Part shown: one piece after another, positions 22,439-36,534 of the stretch | Position numbering within the stretch: position 1 is the stretch's first letter | Layout of the letters: every line of letters begins with the position of its first letter | The notes under the pieces: model-generated | The model's input: only the letters and a program-made list of their open reading frames with translations | The model's database searches: none | Told to the model about the DNA's origin: nothing | Position numbers and translations under genes: made by a program | Virus record (IMG/VR): IMGVR_UViG_3300034198_005094 | Location: 1-36,534 of that record | From: a virus | Length of the DNA stretch: 36,534 nucleotides | Direction: 5' to 3' (one strand)

Positions 22439-23294
22439 CCTGTTTCTCCTTATAGGGGGCACACTTCTTGCACGCTCCACTTTCATCTACATTACAGGCT
22501 AACGGAATCCCCGCTTCAACAGCATCTACGACAACCCGTGCGTTGTCAAAAATCTTTTCAACAAATCGATAGTCAGCTTTAACTGGAAACTCCTTGTAAG
22601 ACTGGTCTGCCTTGAGTTCGTAAATAAAAACAATCTCATCAATAGGGTCTCCCATGCGCTTCATTAGCTCAAGGTACATTTGCCCCTGTAAAACGTGAGA
22701 TTGGAAAGGATGGGTAACTTTCGTCCATGCTTTCATAAAGTCCCCGTATGCCTCATACATCTGGGTAGGAGCTTCAAACCGCAGTGTTCCGGGTCCAATT
22801 GACTTAATCTCAATCAGACAGTCATCTCCAATACCTTTAATCCAGCCATCGGTGTGACCCTTGATACGCAAGTCGTCGTCTCGCAAAGTGACTTCTTCGT
22901 AGTAAAGGGTGTGGCGAGGGGCTGTACAAGACCCGCACATTTCGGGAGAAGTGCCCCACGTAATCTCGTTACATACCTGACACCGGAATTGACCGTGAAG
23001 AACACCCATGTCTTGGAACCAACGTTGCCATTTAGCGTGAATGGCGTGACCTTCGTCAAAGATAGACTGTAGTTTGAGACCGGGAGTTTCGGCAATTTTC
23101 TTGTGACCACTGAGCAAGAACCACGATTCCCGCAGACACCAGTCCTTCTTAATAATCTCTGAGGGATGAAGCACTGTAGTAGAACGGTCTCCGGGGGGAC
23201 GAGAGAGCAAATACCGCTCTACATCACCAATCAATCTATTCGAAGATTTCTTCGCATTAAGATACGCTTTTAGTGTCGGGTCCTTAACAGACAT
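22428..23294 (-). CDS. Cas4/RecB-like nuclease with inserted zinc ribbon
   Basis: The 288-residue protein has the PD-(D/E)XK core in order: a His in EGHAIHAKWQ, GHTDGWIKG (Asp149), LIEIKSIG (Glu162-x-Lys164), and a Gln/Tyr helix (HVLQGQMYLELM). Cys53 near the N-terminus and Cys267, Cys275, Cys278 near the end fit the 4Fe-4S clamp of Cas4/AddB-type enzymes. An extra zinc ribbon (Cys105, Cys108, Cys120, Cys123) lies between. Such phage enzymes act as 5'-3' exonucleases in recombination. The ATG at 23294 overlaps the WhiB stop (TGATG); there is no CRISPR array here. Confidence 0.9.
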   Translation of the reverse strand: MSVKDPTLKAYLNAKKSSNRLIGDVERYLLSRPPGDRSTTVLHPSEIIKKDWCLRESWFLLSGHKKIAETPGLKLQSIFDEGHAIHAKWQRWFQDMGVLHGQFRCQVCNEITWGTSPEMCGSCTAPRHTLYYEEVTLRDDDLRIKGHTDGWIKGIGDDCLIEIKSIGPGTLRFEAPTQMYEAYGDFMKAWTKVTHPFQSHVLQGQMYLELMKRMGDPIDEIVFIYELKADQSYKEFPVKADYRFVEKIFDNARVVVDAVEAGIPLACNVDESGACKKCAPYKEKQDAN

Positions 23295-23608
23295 CAAAAG
23301 GTCCTTTCATTCAACACGTAGTCTTCGAGAGTCATTTTGTCTTTGTAGAGCCTACGCCACTTTCTAACCAAAGCGTTTCTCTCTCGGTGACTCATGCCCC
23401 CCCAGATTCCGTGAACCTCGTCTGAGTCTATCGCGTACCACAGACACTCGTTCAATACTGGGCACGGTGTCTTGCCGTTTACTCCAAAACAGTAAACCTT
23501 TGCTTTGTCGGCAATTGATTTGTACTTATCTTTGTCTCGGGGTGGGAAGAACAGCTCAGTGTCTTCACCTTTACACCGAGCTTCTTCACGCCACGATTCA
23601 TCCCGCAT
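23294..23608 (-). CDS. WhiB-like protein with widened cysteine spacing
   Basis: The 104-residue protein has Cys12, Cys40, Cys49 and Cys55, followed by GIWGGMSHRERN and a basic tail. The usual WhiB spacing between the second and third Cys is two residues; here eight residues (FGVNGKTP) lie between Cys40 and Cys49, while C-x5-C before the turn is kept. Such longer loops occur in some phage and plasmid WhiB proteins that I recall. The gene is embedded in the recombination operon, overlapping both neighbours. It probably alters host or phage transcription through the sigma factor. Confidence 0.88.
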   Translation of the reverse strand: MRDESWREEARCKGEDTELFFPPRDKDKYKSIADKAKVYCFGVNGKTPCPVLNECLWYAIDSDEVHGIWGGMSHRERNALVRKWRRLYKDKMTLEDYVLNERTF

Positions 23609-26323: not shown

Positions 26324-26750
26324 ACCAATGTCCTTTTCTGTTTACAACCTTTATGATACCCAAGTCAACAAGCTGAGACAACGCGCCGACCAAGGTGCTT
26401 ACGGATACTTGTGTAAAAACTTTACGCGTCATTACCCAAGCAGAGGCTGGGAGGACATCTTCGTCATCTAGCTCGGCTTTTTGATACTCGGTAATTCCTT
26501 CTGCCATTGTGTGCGCAAAAGCGTAAAGAAGAGGAATTAAATGAGATATTTCAGATACGCGGTTTTCGCTTTCCTCATACTCTTTGTCTAAAACTTCCTC
26601 GCTAATCTCAGACATGCCTAAATACGCAACTACTTCTTCTGCTTCAGGAAGTTGAGAGTCGTAAATAAACTCTCTTATTCGGGCTGTCAACTCTGGGATA
26701 GACATGTCTTCTGGGCGGTTGCGATGAAATATCACTTTGCTTCGCCCCAT
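26304..26750 (-). CDS. Hypothetical protein with C-terminal winged-helix-like region
   Basis: The 148-residue protein has helices in its first 100 residues and ends VSTLVGALSQLVDLGIIKVV followed by NRKGHWYDIFKR, typical of a winged helix (recognition helix, then a beta wing). It overlaps the polymerase end by 19 bases. No ribosome-binding site is evident at 26750; a later ATG at 26705 is possible. It is probably a DNA-binding regulator or replication accessory protein. Confidence 0.7.
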   Translation of the reverse strand: MGRSKVIFHRNRPEDMSIPELTARIREFIYDSQLPEAEEVVAYLGMSEISEEVLDKEYEESENRVSEISHLIPLLYAFAHTMAEGITEYQKAELDDEDVLPASAWVMTRKVFTQVSVSTLVGALSQLVDLGIIKVVNRKGHWYDIFKR

Positions 26751-28735
26751 TTATCAACCACGTTAATTTCAGCCACAAGAGGTATTGTAATCTGCTTTAA
26801 CTTAATACCTTCCATAGACACGCGAATCGCTTCGACGGTCTCTTCTGCACGGTCTTCGGGGCACATAGTGACCAGTTCGTCATGAACCGTGAGAACTACA
26901 TTGATGTCTGGCTCGTCAATAAAGCACGAATGAGCGCGGACAATAGCCAACTTCATGACGTCCGCAGCAGAACCTTGAATGACGGTGTTGAATGCCTGAC
27001 GTTCTGCTCTAGAGAGGAATCCTTGTTCCCGACTTATGAGGTCTGGCAAATAGCGTCGGCGTCCAAAGATAGTCTCAACATACGGTACTGGCTTTGTCTG
27101 TCGAGCAAGACGTACTACCTCACCCTTGTACTTGGTAACCGACGAAAACGCGGACTCAAAGTCGGCAAGAAGTTGTCGCGCTTCCTTGACCGTACAACCA
27201 ATGCTGGAGGCAATCTTATCGGGTCCCACACCGTACGAGATGGCAAGAACCAGAACCTTGCCAGCCTTGCGGTCAACGCCCATCGTGTCACCGATAGCTG
27301 TGTAAATGTCCCCACCAGTACGGTACGTCTCAGTCATAACAGGGTCATTAGAAAATGACGCAATGATTCTTGGCTCAATCTGAGAGTAGTCTGCTACGAC
27401 CAACTTGTACCCCGGTTGAGCAACAAAGAGATTACGAATAAGCTTTCCGTATTCACCTGAGGATGGTATGTTCTGGAGGTTAGGGTTTGCCGATGAAAGA
27501 CGCCCAGTCTCAGCACCGTGCGCTTTAAAGTCCGTGTGCACACGCCCTTTGATAAGCAGACTCTTTTTATCAATGAGTCGTTCCTTACCTTTATTTACGC
27601 GCTTTACCTCGCCACCAGCGTAGGGGGTTACGTACGTGGTCATAATCTTGTTGAGGTCTTGATACTCCAACAGAGCGTCAACCAACTCGTCTTGACCACG
27701 GTACATCTCCAGTGCGTCTGCACTGACAGAGTAGTGTTGAGGAAGGATAGGGGAATTAGATGCCCGTGCTTCTTGACCCTTAGGAGTAAGAGCAATCTTC
27801 AGTGCTGGGTTTGGGCGAATCCGAGGTGATTTAGCCCCGTCACGTTTTGAGAACAACAGCTCTTGTTTAACAGGGACAGAGTTAATACTAAACGTCTCAC
27901 CTGCAAGACGGTACACCCGCTTCTCTGCTTCAAGCTTGTCGTGAGACAATTGCTCGTCAAGAACCTTTAGCTGGTCAAGGTCGATAACTGCACCTGCCAA
28001 CTCCATGTCGCACAACGCGGGGAGACAATCCATCTCCAACTTCCAAACCTTGCTTAAGTTACCTTCCAGTTTGGGAGTAAGAGCCTTGTATAGTTTCCAC
28101 GTCACGTCGGCGTCGATACCTGCGTACTTTGCCACATCTTCAAAAGAGTGCTGAGAAATGTCTTCTCCAACCCCTTTTTCAATCTTGAGTTTAAGTTCTC
28201 GTTCTACGCAGTAGAGAAGGCTCAACTTGTGGCGGTTACGGTTGTCAATGATAAACGATGCCATCATGGTGTCAAAGTAAGGACCGCTGGGAATGGTGGT
28301 CTTGTAGTACTTAGCCACAGACTTTAAGTCAAATTTTAGGTTGTGACCAATCTTCAATGCAGGTCCAAACATGACGGGCTTAATTGCGGAGAACACCTCT
28401 GCCGGAGTCAACTGCTCGGGCGGGTCTGTGAACTGAGGAATCCACAGCTTAGAGTTTTTAGAGAAGTGAGTGTCACTAAGTGGCTTGCCCTCAGCGACCC
28501 GTCGTTTACCAGAGAGGAGAAGGGGCTTAGTCCAGAACTCAAACTCTCCGTTGGGGTGACCCATGGGGATTACGTCCACACGACTGTCTGTGGCAAATGA
28601 CAGCCAACAAACGTCGTTGATAATGGTATTGACGCGGTTTTCCCCGATAGTTTCGCAGTCATAGGCAAAAGCGTCTACCGCACTGTATGCCTGTACAAAT
28701 TCTTCTAGTTGTTCCCTTGTAGTAATGATGTTCAT
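26732..28735 (-). CDS. Family A DNA polymerase (exonuclease + polymerase)
   Basis: From the ATG at 28735 (AAGGGACAATAAA upstream; an in-frame start 14 codons earlier is less likely) the protein has 667 residues. It has 3'-5' exonuclease motifs (Asp26-x-Glu28, Asp136, Asp208/Asp210) and polymerase motifs A (VADYSQIEPR, Asp449), B (RKAGKVLVLAISYG, Arg489, Lys493, Tyr501) and C (VHDELV, Asp619). There is no 5' nuclease domain. At the place of Phe762 of E. coli Pol I stands Leu497, a variant known in viral polymerases. It is presumably the replicative polymerase, paired with the nearby primase and helicase. Confidence 0.97.
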   Translation of the reverse strand: MNIITTREQLEEFVQAYSAVDAFAYDCETIGENRVNTIINDVCWLSFATDSRVDVIPMGHPNGEFEFWTKPLLLSGKRRVAEGKPLSDTHFSKNSKLWIPQFTDPPEQLTPAEVFSAIKPVMFGPALKIGHNLKFDLKSVAKYYKTTIPSGPYFDTMMASFIIDNRNRHKLSLLYCVERELKLKIEKGVGEDISQHSFEDVAKYAGIDADVTWKLYKALTPKLEGNLSKVWKLEMDCLPALCDMELAGAVIDLDQLKVLDEQLSHDKLEAEKRVYRLAGETFSINSVPVKQELLFSKRDGAKSPRIRPNPALKIALTPKGQEARASNSPILPQHYSVSADALEMYRGQDELVDALLEYQDLNKIMTTYVTPYAGGEVKRVNKGKERLIDKKSLLIKGRVHTDFKAHGAETGRLSSANPNLQNIPSSGEYGKLIRNLFVAQPGYKLVVADYSQIEPRIIASFSNDPVMTETYRTGGDIYTAIGDTMGVDRKAGKVLVLAISYGVGPDKIASSIGCTVKEARQLLADFESAFSSVTKYKGEVVRLARQTKPVPYVETIFGRRRYLPDLISREQGFLSRAERQAFNTVIQGSAADVMKLAIVRAHSCFIDEPDINVVLTVHDELVTMCPEDRAEETVEAIRVSMEGIKLKQITIPLVAEINVVDKWGEAK

Positions 28736-28788
28736 TTTATTGTCCCTTGTTAAATGTCTCCTTTTCTTACCCACCAATTAAGAAGGGA

Positions 28789-30474: not shown

Positions 30475-32046
30475 TTAAATTCGTGATGATAGGAAATTTA
30501 TCAAACTTCCTACAGTGAGGTCAACCCCTCCATCAGAGTTTATACCTTCTCCATCTAACACTGCCCCTGCGACACTCATCTTCTGCTGAAGCATGTCGTA
30601 CTGTCGTTGCTCGATAGAGCCGTTGATAAGGAAGTCTTGAATGGTAACTGTTTGCCATGTAGAGCTGGTTCTCTTGATTCGCCCGTTACGTTGGACTGAA
30701 AGACCGGAAGACCAAGGTTGGTCATAGTTAATGAGCAAGTTTGCTTGAGGTAAATCAACCCCATAACCTCCAGCGTCACTGCTGACAAGTACCCGAATAT
30801 CGGTAGAAGTTTGGAAGGCAACCTTGTGGGCTTCCTTCTCTTTGGCGTTCATCTTCCCTGTGTAAGGAAGGGCTTTAAAGTTTTTTGCACCTAGACGATT
30901 GACGATGTGGTCAACTGAGCCAAGATAACTTGAGAACACAACGGCTTTGTACGACTCATCAATGTCTAGGTGCTCACTCAAGTATGAGACAACTGCGTCA
31001 AGCTTGGGGGTCTTATCGACACCTTCTAACAACCCTTCCTCTCCGAGGGAATGCACAAAAGCACTTCCTTTTCCCTGTTGAGCAGAAAAATTTTTGTAAC
31101 TCTCTTTGAGTAAGTCGGGGTGCGAACAGAGCATGCGAAGCGCGGTGATTCGGGACATAATCTTGCCCCTCATTTCGTTTGCGGGGTCATTAGGTCCCTG
31201 TGACTGACCGTAGTGGGAAGCAATGCTGAAAGATGCTCCAAATAATTGGCTGGCGTCTAAAAGCAATGAGTGCAGGTCGGTGGCAATGTAGTTGTACAAC
31301 GACTTGGTCTTGGAGTCAAAGGTGACAAGCATAGGCTCGCGGTAAACAGCGTCAGGAAGAAACGGAGCTACGTCTTCGTCTTTTTGAGACTTGCGGGCTG
31401 TGTGGTCTGAAAGTGTGGAGTACAAAGTCGGAAGATTGCGGTAACGCAAAACTCCGCCAAAATGATTACGAACAATAAATGTTTTATCAAACAAGTCAAA
31501 ACGACCAAGAACCTCGCGGTTCACAAACTCCATGATGGAGTAAATCTCTTCTGGTCGCCCGTTCTCAATAGGTGTCCCTGTCAGGGCATACCTGATGGGA
31601 ATTGATTTAGAAAGCTCTTTTACTTTTTTTGCTCGTTTTGCTCGGAATCCTTTGATTGCTGTTGCTTCGTCGCAAATGATTGCAGAAAAACTTTTAGTGC
31701 GAATAATGTCCCAGTCATTTACCACCTGCTCGTAATTCATGATGATGTAGTTGTAATCCAAGTATGTCTCGTAAGACATATTTCGTTGCTTGGGCGTACC
31801 GTCAATCACTAGCGCAGTTTGGTCACTGAACTTATTGATTTCTTTTTGCCACTGGTACTTCAAGCTGGCAAGACAAAGCACAAGAACCGGAGAGGTGACC
31901 TCGCCGGATTCTCGTAATGTCTCAATCGCTGCAATGGTGCTTGGCGTTTTGCCAAGACCCATCTCGTATGCCATGAGGAGTTTCTTTTTCTCCACCATAG
32001 CGTCCACAGCCTCCACCTGATAGGGGAGTAGGGAACCCTTAAACAT
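30475..32046 (-). CDS. SNF2-family DNA helicase/translocase
   Basis: The 523-residue protein has the SF2 motifs in order: YQVEAVDAM (Q-like motif), MGLGKT (Walker A, 29-34), CDEATAIKG (motif II, Asp126-Glu127), ALTGTPIENG (motif III), a C-terminal domain with VVFSSYLGSVDHIVNRL, and SSDAGGYGVDLPQANLLINY then RNGRIKRT (motifs V-VI). SNF2 proteins move along duplex DNA using ATP. Phage members may help fork restart or displacement of bound protein. CCTAGGAGAACGCGCGT precedes the ATG, which overlaps the primase end by eight bases. Confidence 0.95.
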   Translation of the reverse strand: MFKGSLLPYQVEAVDAMVEKKKLLMAYEMGLGKTPSTIAAIETLRESGEVTSPVLVLCLASLKYQWQKEINKFSDQTALVIDGTPKQRNMSYETYLDYNYIIMNYEQVVNDWDIIRTKSFSAIICDEATAIKGFRAKRAKKVKELSKSIPIRYALTGTPIENGRPEEIYSIMEFVNREVLGRFDLFDKTFIVRNHFGGVLRYRNLPTLYSTLSDHTARKSQKDEDVAPFLPDAVYREPMLVTFDSKTKSLYNYIATDLHSLLLDASQLFGASFSIASHYGQSQGPNDPANEMRGKIMSRITALRMLCSHPDLLKESYKNFSAQQGKGSAFVHSLGEEGLLEGVDKTPKLDAVVSYLSEHLDIDESYKAVVFSSYLGSVDHIVNRLGAKNFKALPYTGKMNAKEKEAHKVAFQTSTDIRVLVSSDAGGYGVDLPQANLLINYDQPWSSGLSVQRNGRIKRTSSTWQTVTIQDFLINGSIEQRQYDMLQQKMSVAGAVLDGEGINSDGGVDLTVGSLINFLSSRI

Positions 32047-33019
32047 ACGCGCGTTCTCCTAGGAGGCTTGAGGTAGAGTTTTCAATACCCCATGCTATCT
32101 CACTATCAGTCATATCTCCGGGGTCTTTCTTGCTCGTGTCACCGTAGTTAAAGAACGACAAGTTGATTCCGTACGTGATTGCTTGTCGCATTAACTCGCT
32201 AGAAACCTTCTTGCCAGCAGAGTCTATTTTAGGGTTGTCAAAAGCAGCGATGACACGGTCAGCGTAACGAATGATGCGGAGTTGCGTCTCACTGATAGAA
32301 GACCCACAAATTGCAACAGCTCCGGGGAATCCTGCGGTGTGCAAGCGTGCGCAGTCTAGAGGTGACTCTACAAGGTACACAACGCTCTCCTGCATTTGAC
32401 CAAAACCAAAAAGGGTCTTAGAACGAGGAAGACCCGCTGGTCTATTCATGAAAGTTCTTTCTACAGTTCCCTTTTCCTGCCAACCTAGTAGCTTCTTGGT
32501 GTAGGGGTCGTAAAAAGGAAAAACCCACGCTTTCCTGCGTTCATCCCAAAGGATGTTGTAAGCCTCCACCGACTCCCGTGAGAGGTTACGCTCTCGAAGT
32601 TTGTCGTCAGGGGGAGAAACAAAGACTGCAAGATGTGCCTCTGATACTTCAATTGGTTTGGGGGTTTCTTCAATGCGTCTAGGAATAGCAGCCAGCATTT
32701 CCGCGAGTCTTTCAGGAGAAATATCACCAAGTTCTGCTAGCCAACGTTTTGCGGCTTGGTAGTCGTAACTGTAAGTGTCTCCCCAGTTCTTGACGTAGAA
32801 CTCTTCAACATCGCAGACTAGCTGGAGAACATTCCCCTTGTATTGGCAAGAAAAACAGATGTGCTGTCCGGTGTCGAGGTTTATCCACCATGAGGGTGAG
32901 CGGTCATCCTTGCCCGTACGAGCCTTGTGCATGGGGCAAAGACCTAGGGCTTCATTGCCCTTCTCCTCAAAGTCAATACCCAAACGAATGAGGACTTCTT
33001 CAATGTCGATGTCAATCAT
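32039..33019 (-). CDS. DNA primase (CHC2 zinc finger + Toprim)
   Basis: The start at 33019 is chosen because it forms an ATGA overlap with the helicase stop; ten residues more are possible from 33049. In the 326-residue product Cys28-x2-His31 and Cys55-x2-Cys58 form the CHC2 zinc finger that recognises template. The Toprim core contains VYLVESPLDCARL (Glu) and VIAAFDNPKID (the D-x-D region is represented by Asp-Asn), then SSELM. Primase makes RNA primers beside the DnaB-like helicase. The end has STSSLLGERAYV with no obvious helicase-interaction domain. Confidence 0.94.
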   Translation of the reverse strand: MIDIDIEEVLIRLGIDFEEKGNEALGLCPMHKARTGKDDRSPSWWINLDTGQHICFSCQYKGNVLQLVCDVEEFYVKNWGDTYSYDYQAAKRWLAELGDISPERLAEMLAAIPRRIEETPKPIEVSEAHLAVFVSPPDDKLRERNLSRESVEAYNILWDERRKAWVFPFYDPYTKKLLGWQEKGTVERTFMNRPAGLPRSKTLFGFGQMQESVVYLVESPLDCARLHTAGFPGAVAICGSSISETQLRIIRYADRVIAAFDNPKIDSAGKKVSSELMRQAITYGINLSFFNYGDTSKKDPGDMTDSEIAWGIENSTSSLLGERAYV

Positions 33020-34266
33020 TGCTGAATCCAAGGGGTGCAGTACTTGCATTCAAACTTCTTGCTTTCATCATGGAAGCATCCTATATCCCACCGCCACGTA
33101 ATGGAAGTCTCCTCCGGGGGAGCGTTACGGGACTGGACAACTTTCAAGAGTCGAACCTCTTCATCGCCGTCCACCGGCTCAAGACCAAGAATAACGTCCG
33201 AGTCTTGGAAGAACGACGACGAGTAACCAATCGAGTCTGCGGTGACTTTCCCATTCCGCATCTTCCACAACAGAGTCTGAGTAGTGATAACGACTGGGAT
33301 GTCCATACTCTGTGCCACCCGCTTGAGACCACGAGTGATGTTAGTCAATGCTTGAGGGGTGTTGGAGTCACCTGTGACTTGGTCCAGCATCAGGTAGACA
33401 CCGTCAATGAACATAATGTCTGGCTTCAACTGGTCGGCTTTAGCCACGAGTGCGTCAATCGTTAGACCGTTCACTGCATCCACCAGATGGAACGGAGGAG
33501 CGTCTGCCATCTGAATGAGCATGTCTCGATACCGAGCCTCTTCGCTATCAGATAGCTTTCCAAGTCGAAGGTCTTTGTGAGAGAGGTGCGCACGCATAGC
33601 ATCGTGACGCTGAGTTTGCTCGGCGTTGTTCATCTCAAAACTTTGGAACATCGGGACTTTACCGATGGCGTGAGTGTTAATAGCCATCTGCAAGGCAATC
33701 TGAGACTTACCCGTTTTAGGGGGAGCGATAACCGTAATCAACTGCCCACCCTGAAGCCCTGCGGTAGCCTCATCAATCGCGGCAAAACCAGTGGGAATCC
33801 CAAGGAACTCATTGTTCTGCATTTCCTCGTAGTGAAGAAAACGAGACTCGGGGTCTTTGGTCAAGTCAACGTGTTGGGTCCCAACAATGCCCTGCTCATT
33901 GACAATCGAAATAGTCTTGGACATCTCGGAAAGAGCGGACTCAAAGTTGTTCTGCTGCATGTCGGCAACAGCTTGAGCAACACCCTGATTAACCAAAGTG
34001 CGACGGCGGAAAGCAACCATCTGGTCAATGAGGTAGTCAATAGTATCTCCGACATCGAGTGCCGTGAAGTTTGGGAAGTTGTCCTTTACCGCTGTGTACG
34101 TAGGTACTTCTCGGTATTTGGCGTAGTGCTCTCGGACAAACTTCCAGATACGACGAAGGTCGGGGTCAACAATCCAGTCGTCCCGAATCCCAACCTCGAT
34201 AACCGGAATGATGTTCCGGTCTGTGATTACTTTGCTAAGTAACCTGTACTCGTTATCGTGTGCCAT
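33016..34266 (-). CDS. dnaB: DnaB-like replicative helicase
   Basis: The 416-residue protein has an N-terminal helical domain, then APPKTGKSQIALQM (Walker A, 182-188), FQSFEMNNAEQTQR (H1a), DIMFIDGVYLML (Walker B, about 284-293), and VVITTQTLLW, which are RecA-core motifs of DnaB. The C-terminal end (FECKYCTPW) adds a C-x2-C not in typical DnaB. DnaB hexamers unwind the fork and need a loader, likely the 35012 gene. AAGGGAAATAAG precedes the ATG; it overlaps the primase start by four bases. Confidence 0.95.
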   Translation of the reverse strand: MAHDNEYRLLSKVITDRNIIPVIEVGIRDDWIVDPDLRRIWKFVREHYAKYREVPTYTAVKDNFPNFTALDVGDTIDYLIDQMVAFRRRTLVNQGVAQAVADMQQNNFESALSEMSKTISIVNEQGIVGTQHVDLTKDPESRFLHYEEMQNNEFLGIPTGFAAIDEATAGLQGGQLITVIAPPKTGKSQIALQMAINTHAIGKVPMFQSFEMNNAEQTQRHDAMRAHLSHKDLRLGKLSDSEEARYRDMLIQMADAPPFHLVDAVNGLTIDALVAKADQLKPDIMFIDGVYLMLDQVTGDSNTPQALTNITRGLKRVAQSMDIPVVITTQTLLWKMRNGKVTADSIGYSSSFFQDSDVILGLEPVDGDEEVRLLKVVQSRNAPPEETSITWRWDIGCFHDESKKFECKYCTPWIQQ

Positions 34267-34287: not shown

Positions 34288-34707
34288 CTATAAATTCTGT
34301 AGTTCAATTCCCCATGAACCGTAGCGTGCAACACGCTCTACTATGTCTATCACACCTTTGAGGTTAGTCCTATAAGGCAACTCGCCAATGAAGTCGTCAA
34401 TACTCGGGTAAAGCTCCGCGTAGTTAAACGGGTTCCCGCCCCGACTATCAAGTCGAGCCATCAACTTGTCCAAGTGTTCTTGAGTCCAAAGCTCTGACTC
34501 AAATGCAGAAAGTTCTACGGATAGTCCAAACTGATAGGACTTGTTCCACAGCAAGGACAAGGCGGGGTTATTAAGACCCAAGATTCGTCTGGTGAGTTTA
34601 TTGCCACGGATTATTCTTTTCTCCTCATCAATGTCTGACGAGACTACCGCGTCAATGTTTACGATTATTCTTGGCGGAGTTTCATTGGATATGTCCCCGC
34701 GTAACAC
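34288..34707 (-). CDS. Hypothetical 139-residue protein, possibly HAD-like
   Basis: A GTG preceded by GAGGTTATTTA opens the frame, overlapping the preceding stop. RIIVNIDAVVSSD near residue 14 resembles a degenerate HAD motif I (hydrophobic strand, then Asp), and the later YGSWGIELQ a final strand. Catalytic residues beyond this are not clear. Position between the SWIM protein and DnaB suggests a replication accessory role. Confidence 0.75.
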   Translation of the reverse strand: MLRGDISNETPPRIIVNIDAVVSSDIDEEKRIIRGNKLTRRILGLNNPALSLLWNKSYQFGLSVELSAFESELWTQEHLDKLMARLDSRGGNPFNYAELYPSIDDFIGELPYRTNLKGVIDIVERVARYGSWGIELQNL

Positions 34708-35012
34708 TAAATAACCTCAATGCGAGCGTTATGAATCAACATGTTGCGGAACGAGTCTGCACTTTCTGATGCTCGTTCTATCTCTTCGTCACTAACGTGC
34801 TCGGGGATAGTAATGCTGTACGAGCCATTCTTGGAGATGATTTGCTGACGCACGTAACGCACATGAGCACACCGCTTTCCAGTCTTGTAGACATCGCAGT
34901 CGCACTTAAGTCGCTTGTAATTATCAGGGTTAGCTTGAACTTCATGAACCCCGTCCTCAGACAAGAAGAACTGAAGGGAACGCCATTCTGCCACGGGCTT
35001 AGCCTCTCTCAT
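34707..35012 (-). CDS. SWIM zinc-finger protein
   Basis: Cys37-x-Cys39-x8-Cys48-x-His50 (KCDCDVYKTGKRCAHVRYV) fits the SWIM motif CxCx(n)CxH, found in DNA- and protein-binding proteins. The rest has a strand/helix layout (SYSITIPEHVSDEEIERASE). The 101-residue length is close to a lone SWIM domain. It lies between the helicase-loader-like and HAD-like genes, so may contact the initiation complex. The ATG overlaps the preceding stop (TGATG). Confidence 0.85.
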   Translation of the reverse strand: MREAKPVAEWRSLQFFLSEDGVHEVQANPDNYKRLKCDCDVYKTGKRCAHVRYVRQQIISKNGSYSITIPEHVSDEEIERASESADSFRNMLIHNARIEVI

Positions 35013-35731
35013 CAGTTTTTACGCAAGTCCTTTCCATCCAGTTTAACGCGTCGAAAGGCTTCATGTGCGAAAGACTCCATCGCTTCTGAATAAACTTCCT
35101 TCCACGTCTCACGGGAAACGTTGGTGGTCAGGATTGTCGGGAGACCCTTGTCGTAACGAGTTCGCAGGATATCGTCGAAAGTAAACTTGTCGTACTCAGA
35201 GCCGTACTCTTTGCCAAGGTCATCTAGAACCAGTAGGCGAACATTGAGCGTGTCTTCTTTGGCACGACCGTGGAACCCATCCATCTCCTCTTGCAACCGC
35301 TTACGGTCGTCTACGTCGGCATCAAACAACGCTTTCTTGCGGTAGAGCAGGTCGGTGAATGTCAAGTAATAGACGGGGCGCATGTTCCGCCCATAAGCCG
35401 AGCGGGGCATGTGAAGAATCTTGGATGCTTGGTCTGGGTCTTCTGGAAGGTTCTTAACGAACTCAATCAGGGATGCTACGGCATGCGTGGTCTTGCCTCG
35501 TCCCGGAGGTCCCTCAAGCAAGACTCCGACTCCTGTGGTACCAAGACCTCCGACGTTGAGGATTACTTTGCCATCCATGAGGTCGTGAAACCAGTCCTCA
35601 AGTTCAACGGGTAGGTTCCCCTGACTCTCCCGAATGTTGTCAAAATCCCAGCGCAGGTAGCGCGTAGGAATGTTCGACATCTTTGTCAACCAGTGCTCCC
35701 TGTTGAGACCGATTGTCCTCATGTCAAGCAT
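35012..35731 (-). CDS. DnaC-like AAA+ ATPase (probable helicase loader)
   Basis: The 239-residue protein has GPPGRGKT (Walker A, 74-81), VRLLVLDDLGKEYG (Walker B), FDDILRTRYDKGLPTILTTN (sensor 1), and a C-terminal ARG-containing helix (HEAFRRVKLDG). This is the DnaC/IstB layout that opens and loads the DnaB ring. An N-terminal helicase-binding region of about 50 residues precedes the core. It follows the initiator gene with an eight-base overlap, matching the lambda O-P order. AAAGGATTTCCAAGA precedes the ATG. Confidence 0.92.
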   Translation of the reverse strand: MLDMRTIGLNREHWLTKMSNIPTRYLRWDFDNIRESQGNLPVELEDWFHDLMDGKVILNVGGLGTTGVGVLLEGPPGRGKTTHAVASLIEFVKNLPEDPDQASKILHMPRSAYGRNMRPVYYLTFTDLLYRKKALFDADVDDRKRLQEEMDGFHGRAKEDTLNVRLLVLDDLGKEYGSEYDKFTFDDILRTRYDKGLPTILTTNVSRETWKEVYSEAMESFAHEAFRRVKLDGKDLRKN

Positions 35732-36534
35732 TCTTGGAAATCCTTTCCTCGTAGTTCTTCAGCGCAGAACGCCCAGCGATGTTGTTCTCGAACGTCCTGC
35801 CGTCCGAAGCATACAACACGTCTGTGACCTCTTGGGTAGGCGTGTCTTTCTCGTACTCAATGCCAAGTCGGTCGAAGGCGTTTCGCATGTTGGTCTTGAA
35901 CATGTGTAGATACCACGTGTGAACCTGTGAGGCTTTCTTGTCGGCATCCCGGAAGTTTCTCTCGTCTTCAAAGAACATCCGCATGATTTCCATCTCGATT
36001 TGCGGGGTGATTCCGTACTGCTTCCGCCATCGGGATAGCGCACCACGGATGTCCTTAGTGTTTACCAATGCGGGGGTCATGGGGTAGTGCATCGATAGCC
36101 GGTAGGAAAACTCCGCAGCAACATCTCCGGGGGTCCACTCGTCTTCTGGACGCTTCCAGCGCGTACGGATATCCCGCTTGTCAATCTTGGCTTGGGGCTG
36201 TTTCCGGAGAGCCTCATCTTCAAAAAGCCCTACTCCGCCAATCTCGTCATCTCCCGCAGTGTCTTCACCACGAGGTCTCCACTTCTCCACAATGACCTCC
36301 TTCGTGGGGACGGACGCGTCCCCAATTAAATACGAAGTATTTAATTTGGTAGTTTTACTACTATTACTATTACTACTAGCTGTTGACCACACAGAATTGT
36401 GTGATGGTGTACCCGCAATTTCCACCAAAATGTGTGATGGTTGAGCGGGCAAATCCTCGGAATTGTGTGATGGTAAAACCCCTGTTTCCACAGAATTGTG
36501 TGATGGTGAAACTAGGTGGTAAATGTTCCGAGAC
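35724..36534 (-). CDS. Replication-initiator-like protein, 5' end beyond the window
   Basis: The frame is open to the right edge (269 residues visible). A GTG at 36491 is a possible internal start, but no ribosome-binding site supports it and the frame continues upstream as NIYHLVSPSHNS, so the true start is probably outside. The visible N-terminus carries four 11-residue repeats around P-S-H-N-S, encoded by the iterons. A Ser/Asn tract follows, then a charged linker and a helical C-terminal domain (VAAEFSYRLSMHYPMTPA, then IEMEIMRMFFEDERNFRDAD). A DNA-binding N-terminal domain would lie outside the window. By position it is analogous to lambda O. Confidence 0.82.
   Translation of the reverse strand, partial: SRNIYHLVSPSHNSVETGVLPSHNSEDLPAQPSHILVEIAGTPSHNSVWSTASSNSNSSKTTKLNTSYLIGDASVPTKEVIVEKWRPRGEDTAGDDEIGGVGLFEDEALRKQPQAKIDKRDIRTRWKRPEDEWTPGDVAAEFSYRLSMHYPMTPALVNTKDIRGALSRWRKQYGITPQIEMEIMRMFFEDERNFRDADKKASQVHTWYLHMFKTNMRNAFDRLGIEYEKDTPTQEVTDVLYASDGRTFENNIAGRSALKNYEERISKNA
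36306..36323. repeat. GC-rich perfect hairpin in the candidate origin
   Basis: GGGGACG and CGTCCCC form a 7-bp perfect stem with the loop GACG, lying next to the AT-rich hairpin without a gap. It may act as a boundary or single-strand initiation structure. As it lies in coding sequence, its perfect pairing is less expected. Confidence 0.6.
36324..36346. repeat. AT-rich perfect hairpin in the candidate origin
   Basis: AATTAAATAC and GTATTTAATT form a 10-bp perfect stem with a 3-base loop (GAA). Almost all pairs are A-T, so it is a good candidate for the unwinding element or a cruciform. It is in frame within the initiator gene. Confidence 0.65.
36355..36378 (-). repeat. Eight tandem TAG/TAA triplets
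   Basis: On the minus strand the sequence reads TAG TAG TAA TAG TAA TAG TAG TAA without interruption. It lies between the iterons and the AT-rich hairpin. Bacterial origins carry DnaA-trios (5'-TA[G/A] repeats) that guide initiator onto single-stranded DNA. Whether this array works the same way with this initiator is unknown. Confidence 0.6.
36394..36507 (+). repeat. Four iterons at exact 33-bp spacing
   Basis: Cores begin at 36394, 36427, 36460 and 36493. Copies 1, 3 and 4 share GAATTGTGTGATGGT exactly; copy 2 reads AAAATGTGTGATGGT. The 33-bp period is three helical turns and eleven codons, so all copies lie on nearly the same face of the DNA and stay in the reading frame (P-S-H-N-S repeats). 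Confidence 0.9.

What the first reader, a model, noticed from the sequence alone, without database searches (positions are those of the whole stretch)
36306..36507. Lambda-like origin architecture inside a non-lambda initiator gene
Four iterons, a triplet-rich AT segment and two perfect dyads lie within the coding sequence of an initiator-like protein, followed directly by an AAA+ helicase-loader-like gene and then primase and DnaB-like genes. Lambda has the same order (iterons in gene O, AT-rich region, dyad, gene P). The sequences here share nothing obvious with lambda, and the host is apparently an actinobacterium, so this may be a convergent or very distant origin system.
Basis: partly seen in the sequence, partly recalled or inferred. 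Interest (0 to 1): 0.88.

Follow-up and report, generated by a model that had tools for sequence, protein, structure and literature searches.

The report
Phage replication origin inside initiator gene
An uncultivated phage of actinobacteria appears to carry its DNA replication start site inside the gene for the protein that recognises it, with two hairpin-forming sequences and a hidden second gene start that relatives have preserved while changing almost every letter.

Summary
In detail: four iterons, an AT-rich triplet segment and two perfect dyads lie inside one gene at the window's edge. Relatives (64 IMG/VR loci) complete it: a 345-aa protein with an N-terminal winged helix, an unstructured linker encoded by the repeats, and a helical C-terminal domain, followed by a DnaC-like loader, DnaB and primase. 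The layout works like ori-lambda, SPP1 oriL and RepA_N (pSK41) origins, where the initiator binds sites inside its own gene. The wHTH matches PHROG 678, which also matches lambda O, and its nearest solved folds are RepA_N domains, so distant kinship is likelier than convergence. (1) Iteron sequence switches with the recognition helix across the family. (2) Both dyads covary and persist where relatives have split the gene and the dyads are non-coding. (3) A Shine-Dalgarno plus in-frame ATG/GTG/TTG directly after the dyads is conserved (27/33 members versus 4.5 expected), and is the real start of the C-terminal gene in split relatives. Origin activity itself is inferred; GC skew does not support it. 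Verdict: new variant of a known kind; hairpin role and second product untested.

The parts
35724..36534 (-). initiator gene, 5'-truncated at the window edge (269 of about 345 codons); only the last residues of the winged helix lie inside the window
   Evidence: ORF; complete relatives; PHROG 678/270 replication initiation
36493..36507 (-). iteron 1, ACCATCACACAATTC(TGTGG), first after the winged-helix codons
36460..36474 (-). iteron 2
36427..36441 (-). iteron 3 (two mismatches)
36394..36408 (-). iteron 4; in most relatives a palindrome such as CCCACA-n4-TGTGGG
36378..36386 (-). TCAACAGCT directly after the last iteron; TCA 31/33, ACA 33/33 and GCT 26/33 in relatives whatever the iteron class
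36348..36377 (-). AT-rich triplet segment (TAG/TAA trios), presumed unwinding element
   Evidence: AT 67% over the family against 57% for own-codon resampling (max 59%); AGTA/TAGT words 229 against 71
36324..36346 (.). dyad 1, 10-bp arms; loop TTC on the gene strand, GAA on the window + strand
36305..36324 (.). dyad 2, GC-rich, 8-bp arms, abutting dyad 1
36295..36302 (-). Shine-Dalgarno AAGGAGGT inside the gene
35724..36290 (-). putative second in-frame product from an internal GTG (36290-36288), 188 aa, whole C-terminal domain
   Evidence: model domains
35012..35731 (-). DnaC-like AAA+ helicase loader, overlaps the initiator stop
   Evidence: phrog_50 8.8e-26; present in 15 of 15 relatives' records
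34707..35012 (-). small conserved ORF, no family
34288..34707 (-). small conserved ORF, no family
33016..34266 (-). DnaB-like replicative helicase
32039..33049 (-). DnaG-like primase (zinc finger + Toprim)

Best explanation
This is the theta-type replication origin of an actinobacterial phage, built into the linker-coding middle of its initiator gene. Shown by sequence: palindromic iterons at 33-bp spacing, an AT-rich segment, two covarying dyads, an internal ribosome-binding site with start codon, and a downstream loader/helicase/primase set. Inferred: a dimer of the N-terminal winged helix binds each iteron (about three helical turns apart, so on one face), wraps or bends the DNA and melts the AT-rich segment. 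The C-terminal domain then hands over the phage DnaC-like loader with the phage DnaB, and the phage primase starts synthesis. The dyads most likely act as DNA (hairpins or a cruciform in the melted or supercoiled origin) that bound or hold open the unwound zone; an mRNA role is the main alternative. A second, C-terminal protein without DNA-binding domain is probably made from the internal start and would help or limit loader recruitment.
For: Replication neighbourhood. Winged helix matching replication-initiation PHROGs, shared with lambda O; best solved-fold matches are RepA_N initiator N-domains (E 2.5e-3, weak). Synonymous codons in the linker are kept (51/55 for 82%-identical relatives against 43/69 and 78/146 in the flanking domains; pooled 73% against 37% and 44%). 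Iteron core follows the recognition helix: [AST]ES/EES-RR with CCACA/TGTGG, RTT-W/F/Y with GTTTCA/TGAAAC, REA with TGCCTC/GAGGCA, RE[ST] with TGCCAA/TTGGCA. In L060 it follows the winged helix and not the C-terminal domain. Dyads. Split genes L063/L064 keep both dyads non-coding. Internal start.
Against: No experiment and no read coverage. GC skew in four 91-94 kb genomes does not turn at the gene. In six members (L024, L030, L031, L062, L063, L064) only a half iteron remains at this site, and no nearby repeat array was found in the four checked. Four members (L029, L032, L036, L050) lack both dyads in their usual form and L017 lacks dyad 1. In the window's own clade the iteron palindromes alone are not beyond codon chance (p = 0.25). 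The C-terminal domain matches no family.
Confidence: 0.8

Rival explanations
1. The two dyads are mRNA structures that serve the internal translation start (presenting or gating the Shine-Dalgarno), not part of the origin.
For: They sit directly upstream of the internal Shine-Dalgarno in nearly all members and also in split relatives where that start is the real gene start; RNA folding is strong (z about -5).
Against: Dyad 1 has only 2 G-U cells out of 220, so the symmetry is kept on both strands, unlike typical RNA stems. The loop on the non-coding strand is always C-GNA-G, a loop class known for unusual stability in DNA (PMC4686876), though coding constraints would also allow it. Members without dyad 1 keep the internal start (L029, L036, L050).
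Confidence: 0.35
2. The repeats are a protein feature (PSHNS linker repeats) and the dyads are coding by-products.
For: Repeat spacing is a multiple of three and the units encode similar peptides.
Against: Synonymous sites are conserved far above the flanking domains; unit sequence changes with the recognition helix while the palindrome stays; dyads persist non-coding in L063 and L064; a frameshift in L006 leaves the repeat DNA in place.
Confidence: 0.03
3. The repeats are operators for autoregulation or a partition site rather than a replication origin.
For: wHTH proteins often regulate their own gene; iterons can do both (general knowledge).
Against: The sites lie about 250 bp inside the gene rather than at a promoter, next to an AT-rich segment, with loader, helicase and primase downstream; no ParA/ParB-like product was identified among the genes scanned.
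Confidence: 0.1
4. The AT-rich trio segment is a DnaA-trio and the phage opens its origin with host DnaA.
For: [quoted passage not shown] trio runs are enriched over codon resampling in the family (82 against 45).
Against: Long runs occur in only a few members (L009, L005, L029, L057); most have runs of two; no DnaA-box search was made. The enrichment is better described as TAGT/AGTA words.
Confidence: 0.1

Closest known systems
Bacteriophage lambda gene O / ori-lambda
   Same: Palindromic iterons (four in both) inside the initiator gene straight after the DNA-binding domain, then an AT-rich segment, then a dyad; helicase-loader gene next (PMC5043065). Shared PHROG 678 profile.
   Different: 33-bp rather than about 20-24-bp spacing, unrelated loader (AAA+ DnaC-like rather than P), two covarying dyads, internal start, phage-encoded DnaB and primase; no Pfam Phage_rep_O match.
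SPP1 gene 38 / oriL
   Same: Direct repeats plus AT-rich DUE inside the initiator gene, with loader gp39 and DnaB-type gp40 (PMC6316719).
   Different: SPP1 has a second origin oriR; sequence relation could not be tested (record not in the collection).
RepA_N plasmid initiators (pSK41, pTZ2162)
   Same: N-terminal winged helix binds boxes located centrally in rep; the region encodes a dispensable linker; separate helical C-terminal domain (PMC5703833). Best solved-structure matches to our model.
   Different: No Pfam RepA_N match; plasmids of Firmicutes without a linked loader/helicase set; dyads and internal start not described in the passages read.
pIGRK RepR / RepR'
   Same: One rep gene encoding a full and an N-terminally truncated in-frame initiator from an internal start (PMC6854812).
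   Different: There the short form is known to repress replication; here it is only predicted, lacks the winged helix altogether and is a separate gene in some relatives.
N4 virion RNA polymerase hairpin promoters
   Same: Short DNA stems in which base identity is partly free while complementarity is kept, extruded by supercoiling (PMC4496689).
   Different: Promoters, not origins; no N4-type RNA polymerase was found among the window proteins scanned. An analogy only.

Membership tests
Lambda O / ori-lambda | Initiator binding sites within the initiator gene, followed by an AT-rich segment | tested here: met
   lambda layout read (that the repeats are binding sites is inferred here)
Lambda O / ori-lambda | Phage_rep_O domain (PF04492) | tested here: not met
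   lambda O matches at 5.7e-36; family members do not match
Lambda O / ori-lambda | Sequence homology of the winged helix to O-like proteins | tested here: inconclusive
   shared PHROG 678; direct profile comparison probability 1.3% although the right segments align
Lambda O / ori-lambda | P-type helicase loader encoded next | tested here: not met
   loader matches phrog_50 and phrog_3277 DnaC-like, no phrog_109 P-like match
Lambda O / ori-lambda | Initiator dimer binding to each iteron and melting of the AT segment | not testable with these tools
   needs purified protein
RepA_N initiators | RepA_N Pfam domain | tested here: not met
   no match even at E 10
RepA_N initiators | N-terminal winged-helix fold of 4PQL/4PT7/5KBJ | tested here: inconclusive
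   top PDB matches but E 2.5e-3 and TM about 0.5 to the target, and ordinary winged-helix regulators come close behind
RepA_N initiators | Binding boxes centrally in rep, encoding a linker | tested here: met
   linker pLDDT mostly below 40 between two confident domains, iterons encode it
SPP1 G38P / oriL | Sequence relation to G38P | not tested
   record X97918 not available
DnaA-trio unwinding element | Runs of 3'-GAT-5' trios beside DnaA boxes, conserved | tested here: inconclusive
   long runs in few members only; DnaA boxes not searched

The most novel reading that the evidence does not exclude
The origin contains a structural element not described for theta-replicating phages: a pair of adjacent DNA hairpins, the first with a C-GNA-G triloop on the non-coding strand, selected for shape rather than sequence, which extrude when the origin is supercoiled or melted and act as the entry or priming site. 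Coupled to it, the same gene makes a second, C-terminal replication protein from an internal start.
Probability: 0.3. Interest if true: 0.82.

Novelty: new variant of a known kind. Interest (0 to 1): 0.62.

Why it matters
No convincing relative of the initiator was found among about 50,700 sequenced phage records, so this is an origin system known only from uncultivated phages. It gives a natural data set in which iteron sequence and recognition helix have switched together, which makes the protein-DNA recognition code of winged-helix initiators directly testable. The covarying dyads and the conserved internal start suggest origin parts that lambda-based models do not include.

Tried and rejected
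GC and AT skew on four 91-94 kb genomes: no turning point at the initiator, so it neither supports nor localises an origin. First structure model from five sequences was too poor (pLDDT 53); repeated with 28 sequences. tblastn of three family members against 50,697 phage records: nothing beyond a 29% HTH hit at E 0.6. Host genomes: no encoded relative. Whole-gene PDB sequence search: only chance hits to colicin E5. Lambda O by direct profile comparison: not significant. DnaA-trio idea: kept as a minor rival only. L017's iteron CCCTTGAAAACGAGGGAT resembles the lambda iteron CCCTCAAAACGAGGGA by eye; one member only, treated as possible coincidence. The invariance of RTKRN-GK is not used, because that motif was a retrieval pattern.

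Full report
WHAT IS THERE. The window is a linear 36,534-bp IMG/VR record. Its right edge cuts a minus-strand gene (36534-35724). Three exact and one near-exact copy of ACCATCACACAATTC lie in it at exactly 33-bp spacing, then a TAG/TAA-rich segment (36377-36348), then two abutting dyads (36346-36324 and 36324-36305). No other place in the window has an 11-mer three times within 150 nt, and dyad 1 is the longest perfect short-loop dyad in the window. The loader gene overlaps the initiator stop codon by 8 nt. Two small ORFs, a DnaB-like helicase and a primase follow.

COMPLETING THE GENE. Scans of IMG/VR returned 64 loci encoding the family. The 96%-identical L009 gives the full protein: 345 aa, with the winged helix at about 1-84, the iteron-encoded linker and a C-terminal domain. 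A model from 28 relatives has two confident domains (blocks mostly 80-95 pLDDT) joined by a linker mostly below 40. The N-terminal domain matches PHROG 678 'replication initiation O-like' (1.7e-8 for L005, 1e-7 for L007, 7.5e-5 for L002) and PHROG 270 'replication initiation protein'. Lambda O matches PHROG 678 at 1.7e-35. Pfam Phage_rep_O matches lambda O only, and hhalign of the family against lambda O aligns the two winged helices but is not significant. Foldseek against the PDB ranks RepA_N initiator N-domains first (4pql, 4pt7, 5kbj; E 2.5e-3 to 9e-3), closely followed by ordinary winged-helix regulators. The loader is found in all 15 relatives' records tested.

IS IT SELECTED AS DNA? Four lines say yes. 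First, between L009 and L005 (82% identical proteins) identical residues use the identical codon in 51 of 55 linker positions, against 43/69 in the winged helix and 78/146 in the C-terminal domain; pooled over pairs of 33 representatives the figures are 73%, 37% and 44%. Second, the iteron palindrome changes sequence while staying a palindrome, and its core goes with the recognition helix: [AST]ES or EES-RR with CCACA/TGTGG, RTT-W/F/Y with GTTTCA/TGAAAC, REA with TGCCTC/GAGGCA, RE[ST] with TGCCAA/TTGGCA. L060 has a C-terminal domain closest to CCACA-class members but a winged helix and iterons of the GTTTCA class, so the iteron follows the winged helix. Third, TCAACAGCT after the last iteron is kept at synonymous positions in all classes (TCA 31/33, ACA 33/33, GCT 26/33). 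Fourth, the split genes described below.

THE DYADS. Dyad 1 is an 8-11 bp stem with loop TNC in 28 of 33 representatives. Drawing codons at random from each gene's own usage and repeating the same best-stem search gives p at or below 0.01 in most members. On 22 distinct members 98.2% of cells pair, 8 of 10 pairs change on both sides, 47 cells are double changes (12.8 in shuffles, 0 of 500 as high), and slid registers fall to about 40% paired. Only 2 of 220 cells are G-U. Dyad 2 changes sequence almost completely (GGGGACG, CGGAACAC, ACACACC, ACGCGCC, GTTTTCG and so on); its five inner pairs are 100% complementary and all covary. The stems of dyad 2 were centred by my own search, so the per-member codon test is the fairer measure (p from 0.000 to 0.23, and in some members the second-best stem found there is not dyad 2); it is strong in some members and weak in others. 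In L063 and L064 the winged-helix ORF ends at a stop codon before the dyads and the C-terminal domain is a separate ORF. The dyads then lie in non-coding DNA, dyad 1 is even longer (TAATTAATAAATAC-TNC-GTATTTATTAATTA), and dyad 2 differs between the two yet stays complementary (GGGGC/GCCCC and GAAGGC/GCCTTC). That argues strongly against a coding by-product. Whether the active form is DNA or RNA is not settled: the near-absence of G-U pairs and the constant C-GNA-G loop on the non-coding strand, a loop type with exceptional stability in DNA (PMC4686876), favour DNA, whereas the position just upstream of a ribosome-binding site favours RNA. The window pair folds well as either.

THE INTERNAL START. 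Directly after dyad 2 comes AAGGAGGT-CATT-GTG in the window (36302-36288). Across 33 representatives 27 have a core of at least five Shine-Dalgarno bases 4-10 nt before an in-frame ATG, GTG or TTG, against 4.5 expected from codon resampling (maximum 11 in 300) and 0.2% of other windows in these genes. The residue there is M, V or L, and its codon is nearly always ATG, GTG or TTG. In L063 and L064 this is the ATG of the separate C-terminal gene. A second product of 188 aa, the whole C-terminal domain without DNA-binding domain, is therefore likely. A truncated in-frame initiator has a precedent in plasmid pIGRK, where it represses replication (PMC6854812).

HOW IT MOST LIKELY WORKS. By analogy with ori-lambda (PMC5043065), SPP1 oriL (PMC6316719) and pSK41 (PMC5703833): initiator dimers bind the palindromic iterons at three-turn spacing, strain the AT-rich segment (67% AT over the family against 57% expected from codon resampling), and the C-terminal domain recruits loader plus DnaB. 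The mechanism in this paragraph is inference; only the AT enrichment is measured.

LIMITS. GC skew in four 91-94 kb relatives (three with 123-127 bp end overlaps, so probably circular assemblies) does not turn at the gene. Six members keep only a half iteron at this site, and no nearby array was found in the four checked. Five of 33 representatives lack dyad 1. No DNA-binding or replication data exist. SPP1 gene 38 could not be compared. The host assignment rests on two WhiB genes.

NOVELTY. Origins inside initiator genes are known in several systems, so this is not categorically new. The protein family has no convincing relative in 50,697 sequenced phage records by tblastn, and I found no paper describing paired covarying dyads plus an internal start in such an origin in the library searched, which is not proof of absence.

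Noticed in passing
L063:5023-5877 and L064:5702-6486: Initiator split into two genes (winged helix; C-terminal domain) with both dyads in the non-coding gap.
   Followed up: yes
L006:1812-2859: Near relative with a frameshift inside the iteron array, giving two overlapping frames; could be an assembly error at the repeats.
   Followed up: partly
L020:5310-5579: A second, separate winged-helix ORF (89 aa) sits just upstream of the complete initiator, possibly a paralogue with its own specificity.
   Followed up: no
L017:3440-3505: Iterons CCCACGAAAACGAGGGG and CCCCTTGAAAACGAGGGAT look like the lambda iteron CCCTCAAAACGAGGGA.
   Followed up: partly
window:36534 and L018: The window contig ends at the iteron array, and another contig (L018) ends within the same gene about 45 codons after its start.
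   Followed up: no
window:7376-7648 (+) and 23294-23608 (-): Two WhiB-type regulator genes, pointing to an actinobacterial host.
   Followed up: yes
window:24131-25186 (-): Phage-encoded RecA, in the same strand block as DNA polymerase A (26732-28777) and an SNF2-type helicase (30475-32046).
   Followed up: partly
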